Below, piece by piece: positions 7,452 to 21,947 of a stretch of 64,000 nt of DNA. Below the pieces are notes generated by a model. The model did not search any database and was not told the DNA's origin. It was given only the letters and a program-made list of their open reading frames with translations. The position numbers were made by a program, and so were the translations under genes. Origin of the DNA: Candidatus Accumulibacter conexus. Its GTDB lineage: Bacteria > Pseudomonadota > Gammaproteobacteria > Burkholderiales > Rhodocyclaceae. The stretch lies in assembly GCA_017592775.1 (NCBI GenBank), contig JAGFNJ010000029.1, positions 1-64,000 on the forward strand. Direction: 5' to 3'. Each line of letters starts with the position of its first letter. Position 1 is the first letter of the stretch.

Positions 7452-10400
7452 TCAAGGCTCTGACTCGCTCTTGGTGAGGCGGTGCAGAAGCACGTAGAAG
7501 ACGGCGACGAAGGGAATGGCGAGAAAGGTGGATGCCACCATGCCGCCGAAGACGACGGTGCCGAGCGCCTGCTGGCTGGCGGCGCCGGCCCCGGTGGCGG
7601 TGAGCAGCGGCACGACGCCGAGGATGAAGGCCAGCGAGGTCATGACGATCGGCCGGAAGCGGCGCCGCGTCGCTTCGATCGCCGCTTCGGTCGGCGCCAT
7701 CCCGGCGGCCGTCAGCAGGCGCGCGAACTCGACGATGAGGATCGCGTTCTTGGCCGCCAGCGCGGTCATCAGGACAAGGCCGATCTGCGTGTAGATGTCG
7801 ATCGGGAAGCGCCGCAGCAGCAGAGCGACGACGATGCCGACGAGCGCCATCGGCACGGTCAGGACGACGGCGAGTGGATCGGTCCAGCTCTCGTACTGTG
7901 CCGCGAGGACGAGGAAGACGAGGACGATCGACAGCGCGAAGAGGAGATACGACTGGTTGCCGATCAGCTTCTCCTGGTACGCGAGCCCCGTCCACTCGTA
8001 GGCCATGCCGGGCGGCAGCGTCGCCGCGGCGAGATCGTGCATCCGGCCGAGCGCCTCGCCCGAGCTGTACTTCGGCGTCGGGATGCCGATGAGCGCGGCG
8101 GCCGGGTAGAGATTGAAGCGGTAGATCAGCTCCGACCCGAGCAGCGGGCGCAGGTCGGCGAGCACGCCGATCGGCACCATCTGTCCGCTGCGGTTGGCGA
8201 CCGAGAGATTGCGGATGTCCTGCGGGCTACGGCGGAACTCGCCTTCGGCCTGCACGCGCACCTGGAAGCTCTGGTTGAACTGGTTGAAGAGGTTCACGTA
8301 GCTCGAGCCGAGATGGGTCTGCAGCGTCCGGAACACCTCGTCGATGGGGACGCCGAGGGCCCTGGCCATGTCGCGGTCGAGATCGAGAAGGAGCTGCGGG
8401 CTGTCGGCGCTGAAGGTGGTGAAACCGAGGCGGAGGAAGCCGGGCTCGTCGCTCGCCCGGCGCAGCAGTTCGTTCGTCGCCGCCTGCAGGCCGCGCGCGC
8501 CGAGGCCGCCGCGATCCTCGACCATCATCTGGAAACCGAAGGCGACGCCGAGGCCGGGAATCGGCGACGGTGGCAGGACGGCGAACCTTGCCTGCGGGAT
8601 CGACTTGAACTTCTGCTGCAGGTCGCCGATCAGCTGCAACTGGGAGAATCCGGGCGGGCGCCTGTCCCAGTCGTCGTAGATGACGAAGGTCGTCACCGCG
8701 TTGGCAAGTCTGGCCGAGTCGAGCGCGGAATAGCCGCCGATCGTCACCCAGCCCCGGACCCCGGCGGTCCTGCCGAGCAGCGCATCGACGCGGGCGGCGA
8801 CCTCGCGCACGCGCGGCTGCGCCGCGCCGGGCGGCAGCTCGGCGGTGACGACGCAGTAACCCTGGTCCTCGAGCGGCATCAGCGCCGTCGGGTAGACGGC
8901 GAAGACGCCGGCGGCGAGCCCGACCAGCGCCAGGAAGACGCAGGCCATGCTGCGCGGACGCCTGGCCATCCAGCCGACGAGGCCGAGGTAGCGCTGCTCG
9001 AGTGCACCGTAGGCGCGGTTGAAGCCGCGGTAGAACGCGTTCGGGCGGTGCTGCGGCGGGCGCGGCTTGAGGTGGAGCGCACACTGTGCCGGCTTGAGCG
9101 TCAGCGCATTGAGCGCGCTGATGACCGCGGTGGCGGCAATGACGAGCGCGAACTGGCGAAACATCTGGCCGCTGATGCCGGGCAGGAACGACGCCGGCAG
9201 GAAGACGGCGGTGAGCACCAGCGTGACGCCAAGGATCGGACCGGTCAGCTCGTCCATCGCCTTGATCGTCGCCTCCCTGGGCGCGAGGCCCTGCTCGATG
9301 TAGCGCGAGCTGTTCTCGACGATCACGATGGCGTCGTCGACGACGATGCCGATGGCCAGGATGAGTGCGAAGAGCGTCATCAGGTTGACGGTGAAGCCGA
9401 GCGCCGCCATCGCCGCGAAGGCACCGACGATCGTCACCGGTACCGTTGTCGCCGGCACCAGCATGGCGCGCGCGTTCTGCAGGAAGAGCAGGATGACGAC
9501 CAGCACCAGCACGCCGGCCTCGACCAGCGTCTCGTAGACGGCGCCGATCGACTGCTGGATGAAGACGGTCGTGTCGTAGAGCGAGGTGTACTCGAGGCCC
9601 GGCGGAAAGACCTCGCTCATGGCGGCCATCAGCGCGCGCACCTCGCCGGCCACCTGCAGCGCGTTGGCTCCCGGCAGCGCGAAGACGGCCACATGCGCGG
9701 TCTTCCTGCCACTCAGGCTGGAAAAGACAGTGAACGCCTGCTGGCTCAGTTCGACCCGGGCGACGTCCTTCAGGCGCACCAGCGAGGCGGTCTGCAGCGG
9801 TTGCGCGCCGCCCGTGGCTGCCGCACTGTGGATGGACGGCGGTTCACTGCGGACGACGATGTCCTCGAACTGGGCGACGGTGGACAGTCGGCCGAGCGCG
9901 TTCACGGTGAGCTGGAAGAGCTGGTCCGCCGCCGCCGGCGGGCCACCGACCTGCCCCGCGACGACCTGCGCGTTCTGCCGCTCGATCGCCCGCTGCACCT
10001 GCATGGCGGTCAGGCCGTAGGCCTTCAGCTTGCCCGGGTCGAGCCAGACGCGCATGCTGTACGGCGCGCCGCCGAAGACCTGCACCTGGCCGACGCCGGG
10101 CAGGCGCGCCAGCGGGCTCAGCAGGTTGATGATCGCGTAGTTGCTGAGGAAGGTCTCGTCGAAGCGGTCGTCCTGTGAGAAGAGGCTGGCGATCAGCAGC
10201 ATGTTGGTGCTGACCTTGCGCACGCTCACCCCCTGCGCCCGCACCGGCTGCGGCAACTGCGGCACGGCGCTGTTCACGGCGTTCTGCACCAGCGCCAGCG
10301 AGGTATCGAGGTCGGTGCCGATGGCGAAGGTGACGGTGAGCGTGTAGCTGCCGTCGCTGCCGCTCGTCGACTGCAGGTAGATCGAGTCCTCGACCCCGTT

Positions 10401-16854: not shown

Positions 16855-16962
16855 CTGCACGAGTGCATCGGCGTCGAGTACGGAGCAGCCACCGCCCATC
16901 ACCCAGCCCTTGATCCCCTGCGTCGTTCCCGGCACGCAGTCGAAGTCGGCAGCGTTACCAGA
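16855..16962 (-). pseudogene. Short remnant of an RND permease gene
   Basis: About 36 codons read AADFDCVPGTTQGIKGWVMG GGCSVLDADALV. This matches the periplasmic segment AADIDAVLGAMPGIKGWVTS GGYSALDSATLA of the permease at 10636-13830, with similar DNA. No frame extends it. It lies between vapC and the efflux promoter on the same strand as the operon, so it is a scar of a rearrangement or of a former extra permease gene. Confidence 0.7.
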
Positions 16963-17362
16963 AAGCTCGCGCGTAATGGACAAGAATGTTGCGATCGGCC
17001 GTGAGGAGCGGGGCCTTGCCATGAGCTGCCTGAGCGACGATCAGCCGGTCGAAGGGATCGCGGGTCCATGTCTGGTCTACCGCTGCGCCCACCACCGAAG
17101 CGAACGGTCGCTTGCAGGTTTCGAGGTCGAGTTCGCGGCGCAGGACGTCAAGGAGTGTGGCGGCGTCGCAGTTGATGCGACCGATCTCGTGCAGGTGCGC
17201 AAGCTCCAGTTCGACGATCGGTGAGATCAGCAGCCGTTCCGCGGCATCGATGGCATGACTGCCGGTTGGCGTCAGGCGGCTGACCCCATCCTGGTAAAGC
17301 CAGACGAGGACGTGGGTGTCGAGGTAGACCGGCAAGGGACCCGCCGTCGGCACTGCGCTCAC
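16955..17362 (-). CDS. vapC: PIN-domain toxin (VapC/PilT type, 135 aa)
   Basis: Metal-binding residues are visible: Asp in VYLDTHVLVWLYQDG, Glu in SPIVELELAHLHEIG, Asp in WTRDPFDRLIVAQA and Asp in LLTADRNILVHY. The frame is open far upstream, but the GTG at 17362 overlaps the antitoxin stop as GTGA, the usual coupled arrangement, and gives a normal-length protein. This type of PIN protein (LDTHV..W ending in ADRNI) usually pairs with Phd/YefM-like antitoxins, as here. Confidence 0.82.
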   Translation of the reverse strand: MSAVPTAGPLPVYLDTHVLVWLYQDGVSRLTPTGSHAIDAAERLLISPIVELELAHLHEIGRINCDAATLLDVLRRELDLETCKRPFASVVGAAVDQTWTRDPFDRLIVAQAAHGKAPLLTADRNILVHYARAFW

Positions 17363-17595
17363 GGCACCGGCTGCCAGGCGTCTTCCCACGAGAGATTCGC
17401 CAAGTCCTCCGGATTGCCGCTGACCGTGCCCGGGTGAGGCGAGAGGCGGGCCAAGCGACTGCCCGACGCGGCGAGTACCATGCGCACGGTTCCTCCGGGA
17501 CGTTCGATCTCGACGCTCTCGCCACTGCTGACGACCTGATCCAGGGTCTTGAACAGCTCCGCACGCAAGCGGGTGGCGCTCATGCGATGAGCCAT
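17359..17595 (-). CDS. Phd/YefM-type antitoxin (78 aa)
   Basis: Starts MAHRMSATRLRAELFKTLDQ and continues VVSSGESVEIERPGGTVRMV, the N-terminal Phd fold that binds operator DNA. The acidic tail (NPEDLANLSWEDAWQPVP) would bind the toxin. AAGGAAGAG lies upstream of the ATG at 17595; MSATRL at 17583 is a possible alternative. Its last 4 nt overlap the toxin start. Confidence 0.78.
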   Translation of the reverse strand: MAHRMSATRLRAELFKTLDQVVSSGESVEIERPGGTVRMVLAASGSRLARLSPHPGTVSGNPEDLANLSWEDAWQPVP

Positions 17596-17987: not shown

Positions 17988-19025
17988 ATGCATCTGACTG
18001 CGTTGCCGGCAATCGACGAGTGCCGCTTCGACCAGGGCCTGATCGCACGCAAGGTGGGGAGTTGGCGCGCACCGTCTGCGGTCTCGCGACGACAGCTGGC
18101 GGAACTGCAGGAGGACGCGGCGGCACAAGGCTATGCGGTCGTCTATGTCCGCTCCGCAGGGCCGATCGAAGATCTGGCGCGGTGCTTCCAGGGGCGCTTG
18201 CTGCAGTTTGAGGGCGACCGCGAATCAGCCTTGGCGGTCCTCGACCGCTTTCCGCAAAAGTACCGGACCCGAGCCCTGGCCGAGGACGACTGGCCAACGG
18301 TCGCCGCACTCTATCGCCAGGCCTCGCCGACGCGCTTCAGTCGCGACCCGGCCATCGGCCCCGCCCGCGCGCTTCGGCACAAGCTCAAGTGTCTGCGTAC
18401 CTACTGGCAGAACTTCCCCGGCTTCTTTCTGGTCGCGCTGGGATCGCGCGACGAGGTCGTCAGCGTTCAGGGCTGCATGCCACAGGAAGACCAGTTCGAC
18501 CTCTACGAGTCGGTGGTGTCGGCCGATTCACGCACCGGCTTTGCCCTGGCAGCGATGTTGCGCGCCAACCTCGATCTCTGTCGTCAACGCTTCCCGCAGC
18601 TGACCAGGATCGTGACCCGGATTTACAGCGACAATCCGGTGTCCATCCAGTATTACCGGAAACTCGGGATGCTTCACACCGGCAGCGATTGGTTCTACCA
18701 TCTTTGGCTCGAACAGCGGAGGGCACCGGCGATGGACAGTGAAAGCCTGAGAGAGACCGTGGCGCGTTTTCTCCACGACCAGTTTCTCGTCGATTTCGAC
18801 GACAAGGTAGACGGGGGAACCGATCTGTTCGCCGGCGGTTTCATCGACTCCTTCGGGTTCATGGAGCTGATCTCCTTTCTCGAAACCGAGTTCGGTGTCG
18901 AGTACGCGGCGGAGGAACTGCTGCTCGGGCAACTCAACAGCCTCGACGGACTCGTCGCCTCGGTCGGCAGGAAGCTCGCCGAAGCGGCGCCCGGCGCCGC
19001 CGGCGAGCGCCCGACCCAATCCTGA
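17988..19025 (+). CDS. GNAT acyltransferase fused to an acyl carrier protein (345 aa)
   Basis: Two domains. Residues ~92-242 look like a GNAT fold (RALAEDDWPTVAALYR, then YSDNPVSIQYYRKLGM near 213-228). The ~90 residues before resemble the extra N-terminal half seen in WecD-like GNATs. Residues ~250-332 are an acyl carrier protein with the phosphopantetheine site IDSFGFMELI (Ser288) and helix II 'FLETEFGVEY'. GNAT-ACP pairs are known as polyketide loading modules (the curacin CurA type), where GNAT moves an acyl group onto the ACP. Here the pair stands alone, followed 7 nt later by an acyltransferase gene. Alternative: a sugar-amine N-acyltransferase that carries its own acyl donor domain. 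The domains are clear; substrate and product are unknown. Confidence 0.8.
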   Translation: MHLTALPAIDECRFDQGLIARKVGSWRAPSAVSRRQLAELQEDAAAQGYAVVYVRSAGPIEDLARCFQGRLLQFEGDRESALAVLDRFPQKYRTRALAEDDWPTVAALYRQASPTRFSRDPAIGPARALRHKLKCLRTYWQNFPGFFLVALGSRDEVVSVQGCMPQEDQFDLYESVVSADSRTGFALAAMLRANLDLCRQRFPQLTRIVTRIYSDNPVSIQYYRKLGMLHTGSDWFYHLWLEQRRAPAMDSESLRETVARFLHDQFLVDFDDKVDGGTDLFAGGFIDSFGFMELISFLETEFGVEYAAEELLLGQLNSLDGLVASVGRKLAEAAPGAAGERPTQS

Positions 19026-19032
19026 GGCTGGC

Positions 19033-19950
19033 ATGCGCGAAGCGCGCCGGACCGCCCTGCTGTTTCCCGGGCAGGGCGCGCACGCGATGACGATGCTCGA
19101 CGGACTGATGGCTTGTCCGTCTTTCGGCGAGCGTCATGCGTGCATCGTCGAGCGGCTCAAGGGCGACCCGCTGCGCCGGCCCGATGCTGCCGAGCTGATC
19201 AACACGAACCCGGTCAGCTCCCTGTTTACCGTGCTCGCCAGCAGCCTGTCGCTCGATCTGTTGCGCGTGCAGGGAACTCGCCCCACAGCACTGGCCGGAT
19301 ACAGCGTCGGGCAGTGGACGGCGCTGTACGCTGCCGGCGTCGTTTCTTTCGAGCAACTGGTCGACATCGTCCACACCCGAGCCTCGTTCATGGACGAGTG
19401 CTTCGCGGAGCGCCGCGGGGCGATGCTCGCGGTCATCGGCCTGTCGCTGCCGGCGGTGGAGCAGGTGTGCCAGGAGTTGCAAGCGGATGGGTGGTTCCTC
19501 GCCGTCAGCAACCACAACTGCGTCGGCCAGTACTCGTTGTCTGGCGAGTTGGCGGCGGTGGAACGGGCGATTCCCCTGCTTGCCGCAATGCAGCCGAAGA
19601 AGATCCAGCGCCTGCCGGTTGCCGGTGCCTGGCACTGCGCCCTGCTCGCCGAAGCCGAGCGCCGGTTTCTCGCCTTTCTCGAAGAACTGCCGCTCGGCAG
19701 GCCCTCGCTGCCCGTCTGCGACAATGTCAGCGGCGGCTTCCTGCCCGAGGACGGCCGCGAGATGAAGCGACGACTCGCCCGGCAGGTGGCGTCGCCCGTG
19801 CAATGGGAGCAATGCATGCAGACGCTCCTCCGCGCAGGCTGCGACGAGTTCATCGAAACCGGGTTCGGCAAGGTGCTCTCTTCGTTCGGCTTCTTCATCA
19901 ACCGCAAGGTGCTGCATCGGTCGTTCTGCGATCAGGGCAGCACCGGCTGA
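19033..19950 (+). CDS. FabD-like acyl-CoA:ACP acyltransferase (305 aa)
   Basis: The malonyl-transferase fold is shown by LLFPGQGAHAM at the N-terminus, the nucleophile elbow GYSVGQW (Ser91, in place of the usual GHSxGE), the Arg in HTRASFMDE and the catalytic His in AGAWHCALL (His201). The region after the Arg differs from canonical FabD, as in trans-acting PKS acyltransferases with altered substrates. It lies 7 nt after the GNAT-ACP gene and 5 nt before the amidotransferase gene, so it probably loads the upstream ACP. The cell's housekeeping fabD would normally lie in a fab cluster, which is not here. Confidence 0.82.
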   Translation: MREARRTALLFPGQGAHAMTMLDGLMACPSFGERHACIVERLKGDPLRRPDAAELINTNPVSSLFTVLASSLSLDLLRVQGTRPTALAGYSVGQWTALYAAGVVSFEQLVDIVHTRASFMDECFAERRGAMLAVIGLSLPAVEQVCQELQADGWFLAVSNHNCVGQYSLSGELAAVERAIPLLAAMQPKKIQRLPVAGAWHCALLAEAERRFLAFLEELPLGRPSLPVCDNVSGGFLPEDGREMKRRLARQVASPVQWEQCMQTLLRAGCDEFIETGFGKVLSSFGFFINRKVLHRSFCDQGSTG

Positions 19951-19955
19951 CGGCC

Positions 19956-21947
19956 ATGTGCGGCATCGCCGGTTTCTTCGCTTGCGGGACCGATCCGGCG
20001 ACGCACGAGCAGGTCATCGGCGAGATGCTGTCGACGATCGTCCATCGCGGCCCGGATGAGATCGGCTACTATCTCGACGACCATGCCACTCTCGGCAGCG
20101 TGCGTTTGAGCATCATCGATCTGTCGACCGGGTCGCAGCCGATGAGCGACGCCAGCCAGCGCTACTGGATTGCCTACAACGGCGAGGTGTACAACTACCT
20201 CGAACTGCGTCGTGAACTGGCTGACCTGGGCTGTTCCTTCCGTACCGGCAGCGACACCGAAGTGGTCCTGCAGGCCTGGATCGAATGGGGATTCGCCGCC
20301 CTCGCCCGGCTCAACGGCGGCTACGCCTTCTGCATCTACGATGCACTCGACCACAGCGTGACGCTGGTCCGCGACCGCTTTGGCAAGCGCCCGCTGTTTT
20401 ACGCGCGGCATCGCGCAGGCTGGCTGTTCGCCTCTGAAATGAAAGCCTTTTCGGTCTTTCCGGGCTGGCGTTTCGCGTGGGATGCTGACGCGCTGCGCAG
20501 CGTCTTCGCCTGCTGGACACCGCTCCCGGACGACGGCTGCTACCAGGGCGTCCGGCAGGTGCTGCCGGGCTGCTGCGTCCGCTTCTGCGATGGTCTGGTG
20601 ACGGAGCAGAGATACTGGCGACCCGACTTGGCAGCGGCACCATTCACCGGCAGCCGGCAGGAGGCGGAGGAGAACATCCGCGACCTGCTGGCCGATAGCG
20701 TCCGGCTGCGCCTGCGCAGCGACGTCGAGGTTGCCACCTATCTCAGTGGTGGCATCGACTCGGCAGCGGCGACCTGCCTGGCGCAGGAGCAGGCCGGGCG
20801 GCGGATTCACAGCTTTTCGGTTTCCTTTGCCGACCCCGAGTTCGATGAGTCTGCTTTTCAGACGCGGCTCAGCGAGGCCCTTGGAACCTCGCACCATGTC
20901 CTGACGATCGAAGCGGGGGATATCGCGCGGAGTTTTCCAGCGGCGCTGCTGCAGGCCGAAATCCCCGTCTTCCGTACCGCCTTCGTGCCGCTCCACCTGC
21001 TCTCGGCGAAGGTGCGAGAGCACGGCATCAAGGTCGTGCTGACCGGGGAAGGCGCGGACGAGGCCTTCCTCGGCTACGACATCTTCAAGGAGGCGTGGCT
21101 GCTGCAGCACTGGGCGGAGATGACCGCCGAGCAGCGAAGCGATTTCGTCGCCGCGATGTACCCCTACCTGAAACACTTCAGCAAGGCCAACGCCCGCTTT
21201 CTGGTGCCGCTCTATGAGCGGCAGGCGCAGCAGGCGGCGCATTGGTCGCTGTCGCACGCCACCCGTTTCGCCAATTCGGCGCTGGCTGGCCGACTGCTGC
21301 AGGCCGGTGGTGGTGGTGAAGCGCGTCTGCAACGGCACCTTGCGGTACAGCACCCCGAATTCGTGGCATGGTCGTCGGTCCAGCGCGGACAGTTGATCGA
21401 GCTGACCACGCTGCTGCCCGGCTACCTGTTGTCGACCCAGGGCGACCGTGCAACGCTGGCGCACGGCGTCGAAAACCGCTGTCCGTTCCTCGACTACCGG
21501 TTGTTCGAGTTCGCCGCCTCGCTGCCAGTGGAGCTGCGTCTGGAGAACGGCCTGCGCGAGAAGCAGATCCTGAAGAGTGCCTTTGCCGACCGCCTGCCGC
21601 CGGAAATCGCGGCGCGTCCGAAGCAACCCTATCGCGCGCCGGATGCGCCGGCCTTCCTCGAGCAGGCGGGCCAGGTCGACGAAATCGACGCGGCTCTCCT
21701 GCCCGCCGAACTGGCAACGATCGAGGTGCTCGACCTCGAGACCAGCCTGCGCTTCCTGGACATGATCCGCCGCAAGCCCCCAGACAGGCTCAGCCAAGCC
21801 GAGAACCAGGCCTTCGTCCTCCTGCTCTCCCTGAGCCTGCTCAACCGCTCCTTCGTCCGCCAAGGACACGACTTCAGACAGCCAGGACTCCACCAGCGGC
21901 CGCGCACGATCCATGACCGGCGTTCGCTGCAGCCGTCACGGGACTGA
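19956..21947 (+). CDS. Asparagine-synthase-type glutamine amidotransferase (663 aa)
   Basis: Starts MCGIAGFFACG, so the N-terminal nucleophile Cys2 of class II glutaminase is present, with HRGPDEIGYY and YNGEVYNYLELR. The synthetase half has the ATP PP-loop YLSGGIDSAA and the downstream TGEGADEAFLGYD. The family makes Asn or amidates carboxylates in peptide, polyketide and exopolysaccharide pathways. Standing third in an operon with GNAT-ACP and an acyltransferase, amidation of an ACP-bound or released acyl product is more likely than plain Asn synthesis, but this is inference. The last ~40 residues are Arg/Gln-rich and not conserved. The start 5 nt after the previous stop is fixed by the required Cys2. 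Confidence 0.85.
   Translation: MCGIAGFFACGTDPATHEQVIGEMLSTIVHRGPDEIGYYLDDHATLGSVRLSIIDLSTGSQPMSDASQRYWIAYNGEVYNYLELRRELADLGCSFRTGSDTEVVLQAWIEWGFAALARLNGGYAFCIYDALDHSVTLVRDRFGKRPLFYARHRAGWLFASEMKAFSVFPGWRFAWDADALRSVFACWTPLPDDGCYQGVRQVLPGCCVRFCDGLVTEQRYWRPDLAAAPFTGSRQEAEENIRDLLADSVRLRLRSDVEVATYLSGGIDSAAATCLAQEQAGRRIHSFSVSFADPEFDESAFQTRLSEALGTSHHVLTIEAGDIARSFPAALLQAEIPVFRTAFVPLHLLSAKVREHGIKVVLTGEGADEAFLGYDIFKEAWLLQHWAEMTAEQRSDFVAAMYPYLKHFSKANARFLVPLYERQAQQAAHWSLSHATRFANSALAGRLLQAGGGGEARLQRHLAVQHPEFVAWSSVQRGQLIELTTLLPGYLLSTQGDRATLAHGVENRCPFLDYRLFEFAASLPVELRLENGLREKQILKSAFADRLPPEIAARPKQPYRAPDAPAFLEQAGQVDEIDAALLPAELATIEVLDLETSLRFLDMIRRKPPDRLSQAENQAFVLLLSLSLLNRSFVRQGHDFRQPGLHQRPRTIHDRRSLQPSRD

What the first reader, a model, noticed from the sequence alone, without database searches (positions are those of the whole stretch)
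17988..21947. Compact GNAT-ACP / acyltransferase / amidotransferase operon without a ketosynthase
Three genes with 7- and 5-nt gaps encode an ACP with an intact phosphopantetheine serine fused to a GNAT, a FabD-like acyltransferase with an intact Ser-His pair but a changed elbow (GYSVGQ), and an AsnB-type amidotransferase with both active sites. These are the loading and tailoring parts of trans-AT polyketide lines, yet no ketosynthase, thioesterase, ligase or phosphopantetheinyl transferase is near. A plausible job is loading a dicarboxylic acyl group on the ACP, amidating it and passing it by GNAT to an amine. It could make a small signal, or a surface-sugar or exopolysaccharide modification (the genome also has PEP-CTERM proteins). 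I know of no described pathway with just these three.
Basis: partly seen in the sequence, partly recalled or inferred. Interest (0 to 1): 0.8.

Follow-up and report, generated by a model that had tools for sequence, protein, structure and literature searches.

The report
Malonyl-amide loading cassette fused to GNAT
Three adjacent genes in a wastewater bacterium look like the starter-loading kit of glutarimide antibiotics working without a polyketide synthase, probably to attach an unusual amide-bearing acyl group to a surface sugar.

Summary
In detail: three same-strand genes (gaps 7 and 5 nt) encode a GNAT-ACP fusion, a FabD-like acyltransferase (AT) and an AsnB-type amidotransferase (AMT) with intact active residues, in a Candidatus Accumulibacter genome. 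"No described pathway" needs correcting: AT/ACP/AMT is the described loading kit of glutarimide polyketides, proposed to make malonamyl-ACP. One scan for AT relatives found 15 loci in at least five phyla: 12 hold ACP, AT and AMT, 3 are cut by contig ends. Two run into an AT-less polyketide synthase, two have NRPS pieces nearby, several lie among glycan genes. The altered elbow GYSVGQW is invariant in the 15 ATs aligned. Nine loci have a WbuX-like PP-loop enzyme between ACP and AT; the GNAT is seen in Accumulibacter and two other lineages. All three GNAT lineages carry WecE (4-amino-4,6-dideoxyhexose transaminase), against 57 of 397 other Pseudomonadota; in two lineages (one with the GNAT) WecE is beside the cassette. 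Best reading: AT malonylates the ACP, AMT amidates it, GNAT moves malonamoyl to an amine, most likely of a 4-amino sugar. New variant of a known kind.

The parts
17988..18725 (+). GNAT domain with N-terminal extension (residues 1-246) of the GNAT-ACP fusion; GNAT subfamily without a name in the libraries searched
   Evidence: same GNAT as a separate gene just upstream of the ACP gene in L023
18735..19025 (+). ACP domain with C-terminal tail; Ser288 (18849-18851) is the predicted phosphopantetheine site
   Evidence: aligned to stand-alone ACPs of other cassettes
19033..19950 (+). FabD-like acyltransferase; Ser91 (19303-19305), Arg116 (19378-19380), His201 (19633-19635); GYSVGQW signature
19956..21947 (+). 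AsnB-type glutamine amidotransferase; Cys2 (19959-19961) and SGGIDS PP-loop (20745-20762)

Best explanation
The three genes are a PKS-free relative of the glutarimide loading kit. Inferred steps: (1) a PPTase (one AcpS-type gene is in the genome) makes holo-ACP; (2) the AT loads a dicarboxylic acyl group, most likely malonyl; (3) the AMT uses Gln and ATP to amidate the free carboxylate, giving malonamoyl-ACP; (4) the GNAT, fused to the ACP, transfers the malonamoyl group to an amine. The likeliest amine is the 4-amino group of dTDP-4-amino-4,6-dideoxyhexose, the WecE product, so the output would be a 4-(malonamoylamino)-4,6-dideoxyhexose for a surface glycan. Shown here: gene set, motifs, conservation of the ACP-AT-AMT core, an AMT clade shared with PKS-linked members, and WecE linkage and co-occurrence. 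Inferred: every chemical step, the acyl group and the acceptor.
For: ACP-AT-AMT core: of 15 loci found by AT, 12 show all three, the other 3 are cut by contig ends. Arg116, which aligns with an Arg of the own FabD, is invariant in the 15 ATs aligned: the window's and 14 of the 15 loci, L012's partial AT left out (that this Arg binds the malonyl carboxylate is recalled). The 14 AMTs aligned (window, 12 loci, L030) fall in one clade (98/95) with PKS-linked L015 and L016 inside, and E. coli AsnB and 4 other AsnB-like proteins outside; the tree is midpoint-rooted and has flagged long branches. The described kit is proposed to make a malonamyl thioester. GNAT and ACP are adjacent separate genes in L023 and fused in Accumulibacter and L013. 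GNAT-bearing lineages with WecE over cut-off: 3 of 3 (Accumulibacter, L013, L023); background 57 of 397; among cassette lineages, GNAT 3 of 3 against no GNAT 2 of 10 (Fisher 0.035). WecE starts about 2 kb after the AMT in L023, and about 1 kb after it across a contig break in L017/L087, where genes that look like RmlB and RmlA follow about 4 kb further on the other strand. Genus: cassette-positive 4 of 4 WecE-positive, others 7 of 24 (Fisher 0.016, related genomes). dTDP-Fuc4N is among the nucleotide sugars drawn for Accumulibacter (PMC12925313, passages).
Against: In the own genome WecE is on another contig (C44), not beside the trio; in L013's genome it is on C12 while the GNAT-ACP is on C23. 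7 Accumulibacter genomes have WecE with no cassette detected (searched with the GNAT-ACP only), so WecE does not need it. The GNAT shows no sequence kinship to E. coli WecD, and WecD is only rank 48 by fold. L017 and L022 have WecE and the cassette but no such GNAT. Cassettes without PKS/NRPS neighbours have WecE in 5 of 9 lineages, those with in 0 of 4, which is not significant (0.098). Malonyl specificity is assumed from FabD kinship. No paper naming a malonamoyl sugar was seen in the searches made. Whether the AcpS-type PPTase accepts this ACP is unknown.
Confidence: 0.45

Rival explanations
1. Malonamoyl-ACP is made as above, but the GNAT passes it to an amine that is not a sugar (amino acid, polyamine, lipid head group), giving a small released metabolite or signal.
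For: The trio stands alone in the window between efflux/PIN-domain genes and tRNA-Thr; the GNAT matches only general GNAT folds; the L014 and L021 cassettes also show no obvious glycan neighbours in the ORF lists.
Against: WecE association of the GNAT form; glycan-type neighbours in L017/L087, L019, L020, L023.
Confidence: 0.25
2. The trio primes a polyketide synthase encoded elsewhere, as in glutarimide biosynthesis.
For: Described role of AT/ACP/AMT trios; L015 and L016 run into ketosynthase modules in which no AT domain was matched as far as the loci reach.
Against: The one large type I PKS seen in the genome (C22) has its own AT domain, with KS, AT, DH, ER, KR and ACP matches; the ketosynthases looked at on C18, C22 and C26 are single proteins of about 400-430 aa (the shorter hits were not examined). 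A GNAT before the ACP is not in the passages read on the described kit.
Confidence: 0.07
3. GNAT decarboxylates malonyl-ACP to acetyl-ACP, as GNAT loading domains of some PKSs do (recalled, CurA), and the AMT acts on something else.
For: A GNAT-ACP fusion with an AT resembles such loading didomains (recalled).
Against: The AMT is present in every cassette whose contig reaches it, with or without GNAT; no PKS was found to receive acetyl.
Confidence: 0.08
4. The AMT is an ordinary asparagine synthetase next to an unrelated ACP/AT pair.
For: TIGR01536 461 bits, above the cut-off 267.
Against: Clade separate from E. coli AsnB; kept with ACP and AT across phyla. Aspartate was not tested.
Confidence: 0.05

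Closest known systems
Glutarimide PKS loading kit (SmdFGH, ChxBCD, LtmHCD, MgsHCD, GdsBCD)
   Same: AT, ACP and AsnB homologue in one cluster; proposed malonamyl thioester (PMC7756379, PMC4853412; passages)
   Different: No trans-AT PKS found here; ACP fused to a GNAT; WecE-type sugar genes rather than a PKS in the GNAT-bearing lineages. Sequences of the named proteins were not compared.
Sesbanimide SbnJ/SbnK
   Different: Feeds a PKS; the word GNAT does not occur in the text searched
WecE/WecD route to dTDP-N-acetyl-fucosamine
   Same: WecE in all three GNAT lineages; a GNAT would acylate the 4-amine
   Different: Acyl donor would be an acyl-ACP, not acetyl-CoA (recalled for WecD); no sequence homology of the GNAT to E. 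coli WecD detected
N-acetylglutaminylglutamine amide operon
   Same: GNAT plus AsnB-type amidotransferase (recalled; TIGR03104 is the amidotransferase model)
   Different: AMT 294 bits, below the cut-off 570; GNAT-ACP gives no TIGR03103 hit

Membership tests
Glutarimide-type ACP/AT/AMT loading kit | ACP, AT and AsnB-type AMT encoded together with active residues | tested here: met
Glutarimide-type ACP/AT/AMT loading kit | AT-less modular PKS in the cluster | tested here: not met
   none in the window's ORF lists; the one large type I PKS seen in the genome has a cis AT
Glutarimide-type ACP/AT/AMT loading kit | malonamyl-ACP as product | not testable with these tools
   needs protein mass spectrometry
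XrtA/PEP-CTERM amidotransferase (TIGR03108) | score over 816.9 bits | tested here: not met
   331.8 bits
Malonate decarboxylase MdcH (TIGR03131) | score over 297.9 bits | tested here: not met
   183 bits
Housekeeping FabD (TIGR00128) | score over 260.9 bits | tested here: not met
   175.9 bits; another FabD-like gene lies at C22 among genes that look like a fatty acid cluster
WecD sugar N-acyltransferase | sequence homology to E. coli WecD | tested here: not met
   hhalign probability 0.6%, hmmsearch no significant match; profile of only 5 sequences
WecD sugar N-acyltransferase | fold | tested here: inconclusive
   2fs5_A rank 48, E 2.2e-4, among many GNATs
NAGGN amidotransferase (TIGR03104) | score over 570.1 bits | tested here: not met
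   293.9 bits
Asparagine synthase (TIGR01536) | score over 267.1 bits | tested here: met
   461.3 bits; function not tested

The most novel reading that the evidence does not exclude
The ACP-AT-AMT cassette is a portable supplier of amidated malonyl groups, shared by glutarimide-type polyketides, some NRPS loci and surface glycans. In glycans a GNAT puts malonamoyl on the 4-amine of 4-amino-4,6-dideoxyhexoses. In the nine loci with the extra WbuX-like PP-loop enzyme a second nitrogen is added, giving an amidine. This would be an undescribed class of sugar N-acylation that uses acyl-ACP, and a direct evolutionary bridge between antibiotic starter units and surface sugars.
Probability: 0.3. Interest if true: 0.72.

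Novelty: new variant of a known kind. Interest (0 to 1): 0.55.

Why it matters
If true, a loading kit known from cytotoxic glutarimide polyketides also works alone, and gives bacterial glycans an amide-bearing acyl group. It yields a testable mass (residue 230.090 Da, oxonium ion 231.098) in the matrix of Accumulibacter, whose glycans matter for wastewater granules. It also gives a sequence handle (GYSVGQW AT plus ACP plus AMT) for finding such pathways in unrelated phyla.

Tried and rejected
WecD membership of the GNAT: recalled as a lead, then not seen by sequence. Malonate decarboxylase, NAGGN and XrtA families: below curated cut-offs. P0001 in 150 genomes of the family at E 1e-10: the own genome, and G029 by its ACP part only. 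GNAT profile A2 at 1e-12 in 398 Pseudomonadota genomes: only the own. AT profile A3 at 1e-65 in 398 Pseudomonadota: only the own. At 1e-60 in 399 genomes of the order: 59 genomes match, but all except the own (448 bits) score at most 219 bits, which I take for FabD; in many genomes only the first 5 candidates were scored, so cassettes can have been missed. Plasmid collection with the AT at 1e-30: one record, annotated fabD.

Paper searches for the operon or a malonamoyl sugar: 10 papers; 4; 205 hold three of five terms; one listed, none of those with malonamoyl or malonamide; 0; 1; 3: PMC7756379 and two others that hold 'malonamoyl' once each, not opened; 5 listed, none with malonamido or N-malonyl. 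Passages looked for in PMC11320575, PMC3210612 and PMC2922099 gave nothing on the point. The library holds open-licence papers only. The second structure job was not used.

Weak points: the genus test (4 of 4 against 7 of 24, Fisher 0.016) counts related genomes. It includes G151, which is the genome of L012 (identical WecE locus): its contig starts inside the AT, and no GNAT-ACP was found in it. Without G151 the test is 3 of 3 against 7 of 24 (0.041). The first form of the test, before I noticed this, was 3 of 3 against 8 of 25 (0.050). The other genus genomes were searched with the GNAT-ACP only. 'GNAT lineages 3 of 3' rests on three lineages, and the background of 57 of 397 is Pseudomonadota while L013 is not of that phylum. 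L011's genome and G162 appear to be one (identical WecE locus; same GNAT-ACP protein) and are counted once. L019 and L020 are counted as one lineage.

Full report
What is there. The window belongs to what I infer to be a Candidatus Accumulibacter genome (nearest loci L011 and L012 bear that name). Three + strand genes follow each other with gaps of 7 and 5 nt: a 345-residue GNAT-ACP fusion, a 305-residue AT and a 663-residue AMT. Upstream, on the other strand, lie RND-type efflux genes (named by eye) and a PIN-domain protein with a small partner; downstream come tRNA-Thr and what looks like a GGDEF protein. G+C of the trio (0.655) is like that of the window (0.663).

Active sites. ACP Ser288, AT Ser91/Arg116/His201, AMT Cys2 and SGGIDS are present. 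In the 15 ATs aligned (the window's and those of 14 of the 15 loci; L012's is partial and was left out) the elbow AGYSVGQW is invariant, where the own FabD has AGHSLGEY. So the changed elbow is the mark of a family. In the 14 AMTs aligned, Cys2 and the PP-loop residues S264, G265, G266, D268 and S269 are invariant. The ACP part is recognised only weakly: 27 bits to its best NCBIfam model, E 1e-4 in the PDB, no Pfam PP-binding match at E 0.001.

Relatives. One scan of genome contigs with the AT gave 15 loci, from Pseudomonadota, Myxococcota, Planctomycetota, Nitrospinota and Melainabacteria-type bacteria. Twelve of the 15 show ACP, AT and AMT together. L017 and L022 lose part or all of the AMT, and L012 the ACP and part of the AT, to contig ends. 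Nine of 15 (L014, L017-L020, L022-L025) carry a PP-loop protein between ACP and AT. One of them, from L014, was scanned and is related to N-acetyl sugar amidotransferase WbuX (130 bits, below the cut-off 203). The GNAT profile matches in 4 of the 16 genomes examined: two Accumulibacter, L013 and L023. In L023 GNAT and ACP are separate adjacent genes; in the others they are fused. A further ACP-AMT pair was met in a family member, G029 (L030), with no AT in the stretch fetched.

Contexts, partly by eye from ORF lists. L015 and L016 continue into ketosynthase modules with RhiE-like linkers and no AT match as far as the loci reach, as expected for the glutarimide kit. L018 and L025 have NRPS pieces a few kb away. 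L019 and L020 have a Gmd-like gene, a DegT-type aminotransferase and, after the AMT, a gene with a weak GNAT match (19.1 bits, cut-off 20.7). L023 has a glycosyltransferase-like gene before the GNAT and, after the AMT, a small EamA-like transporter, two methyltransferase-like genes and WecE (610 bits, cut-off 435). L017 stops inside the AMT; contig L087 of the same genome begins with the rest of it (query residues 12-250 against 249-681), followed by a methyltransferase-like gene, WecE and, about 4 kb on and on the other strand, genes that look like RmlB and RmlA. L014 and L021 look isolated.

WecE. Over the curated cut-off it is in 6 of the 15 cassette genomes (L011, L012, L013, L017, L022, L023) and not in the other 9. 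Background: 57 of 397 other Pseudomonadota. In the genus, 11 of 28 genomes have it. P0001 is found in 3 of 28; a fourth, G151, is the genome of L012, whose contig starts inside the AT. All 4 have WecE, against 7 of the other 24. Among cassette lineages GNAT goes with WecE (3 of 3 against 2 of 10, 0.035), while absence of PKS/NRPS neighbours does not significantly (5 of 9 against 0 of 4, 0.098). These are small and related samples. In the own genome WecE lies on C44 in what looks like a glycan cluster, with an ATP-grasp ligase and an amidohydrolase whose homologues also stand upstream of the L017 cassette (28% and 36% identity), and a small transporter gene like the one after the L023 AMT (40%). 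The same cluster is found in Accumulibacter genomes without a detected trio, so it does not depend on the trio.

No synthase to feed was found. Ketosynthase family hits in the genome: 9. The large one has KS, AT, DH, ER, KR and ACP matches, so its own AT. C18 holds a run of single ketosynthase-type genes, C26 one ketosynthase beside an ACP, C22 a FabF-like one. The remaining short hits were not followed up.

Known work. In glutarimide clusters an AT, an ACP and an asparagine synthetase homologue are proposed to make a malonamyl thioester starter (PMC7756379, PMC4853412; passages); sesbanimide has an asparagine synthase with an ACP (PMC8262917, passages). These are proposals in those papers. 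Accumulibacter varies in accessory nucleotide sugars (PMC12925313, abstract), and dTDP-Fuc4N is among those drawn in its Figure 1 legend (passages). In the listings and passages seen I met no paper that joins the kit to a sugar or describes a malonamoyl sugar.

Judgement. The malonamoyl-ACP part is a fair inference (about 0.7), because the gene set, the AMT clade and the described kit agree. The GNAT as N-acyltransferase is likely from its fold and fusion. The sugar acceptor rests on synteny in two lineages, of which only L023 has this GNAT, and on co-occurrence; I put the whole chain at 0.45. The WecD comparison failed by sequence, so this GNAT is not filed with WecD. What is new is the PKS-free use with a GNAT.

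Noticed in passing
window 16955-17592 (-): PIN-domain protein (Pfam 40.4 bits) with a small upstream partner without a Pfam match, probably a VapBC-like toxin-antitoxin pair; similar genes in L011 at 7921-8549.
   Followed up: partly
L011:13141-14448 (+): Tyrosine-recombinase-type integrase just after the trio in MAG-199; in the window the same side holds tRNA-Thr and a GGDEF-like gene. The region may be an integration hot spot.
   Followed up: no
L014, L017-L020, L022-L025, between ACP and AT: A WbuX-like PP-loop protein (the L014 and L023 copies checked have an N-terminal Cys cluster and SGGKDS) sits in nine cassettes; a second amidotransferase there suggests an amidine or other further nitrogen step.
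   Followed up: partly
L018:15431-17122 and L025:6960-8654: Similar proteins that resemble, by eye, cobalamin-type radical SAM enzymes near the cassette in the two loci with NRPS pieces.
   Followed up: no
G000:C22 (L028:7361-15040 -): Single-module cis-AT type I PKS next to genes that look like polysaccharide export genes in this Accumulibacter.
   Followed up: no
L030 (G029:C24): ACP-AMT pair with no AT in the 12 kb fetched, convergent with a thioesterase-like gene, in a genome of the same family.
   Followed up: no
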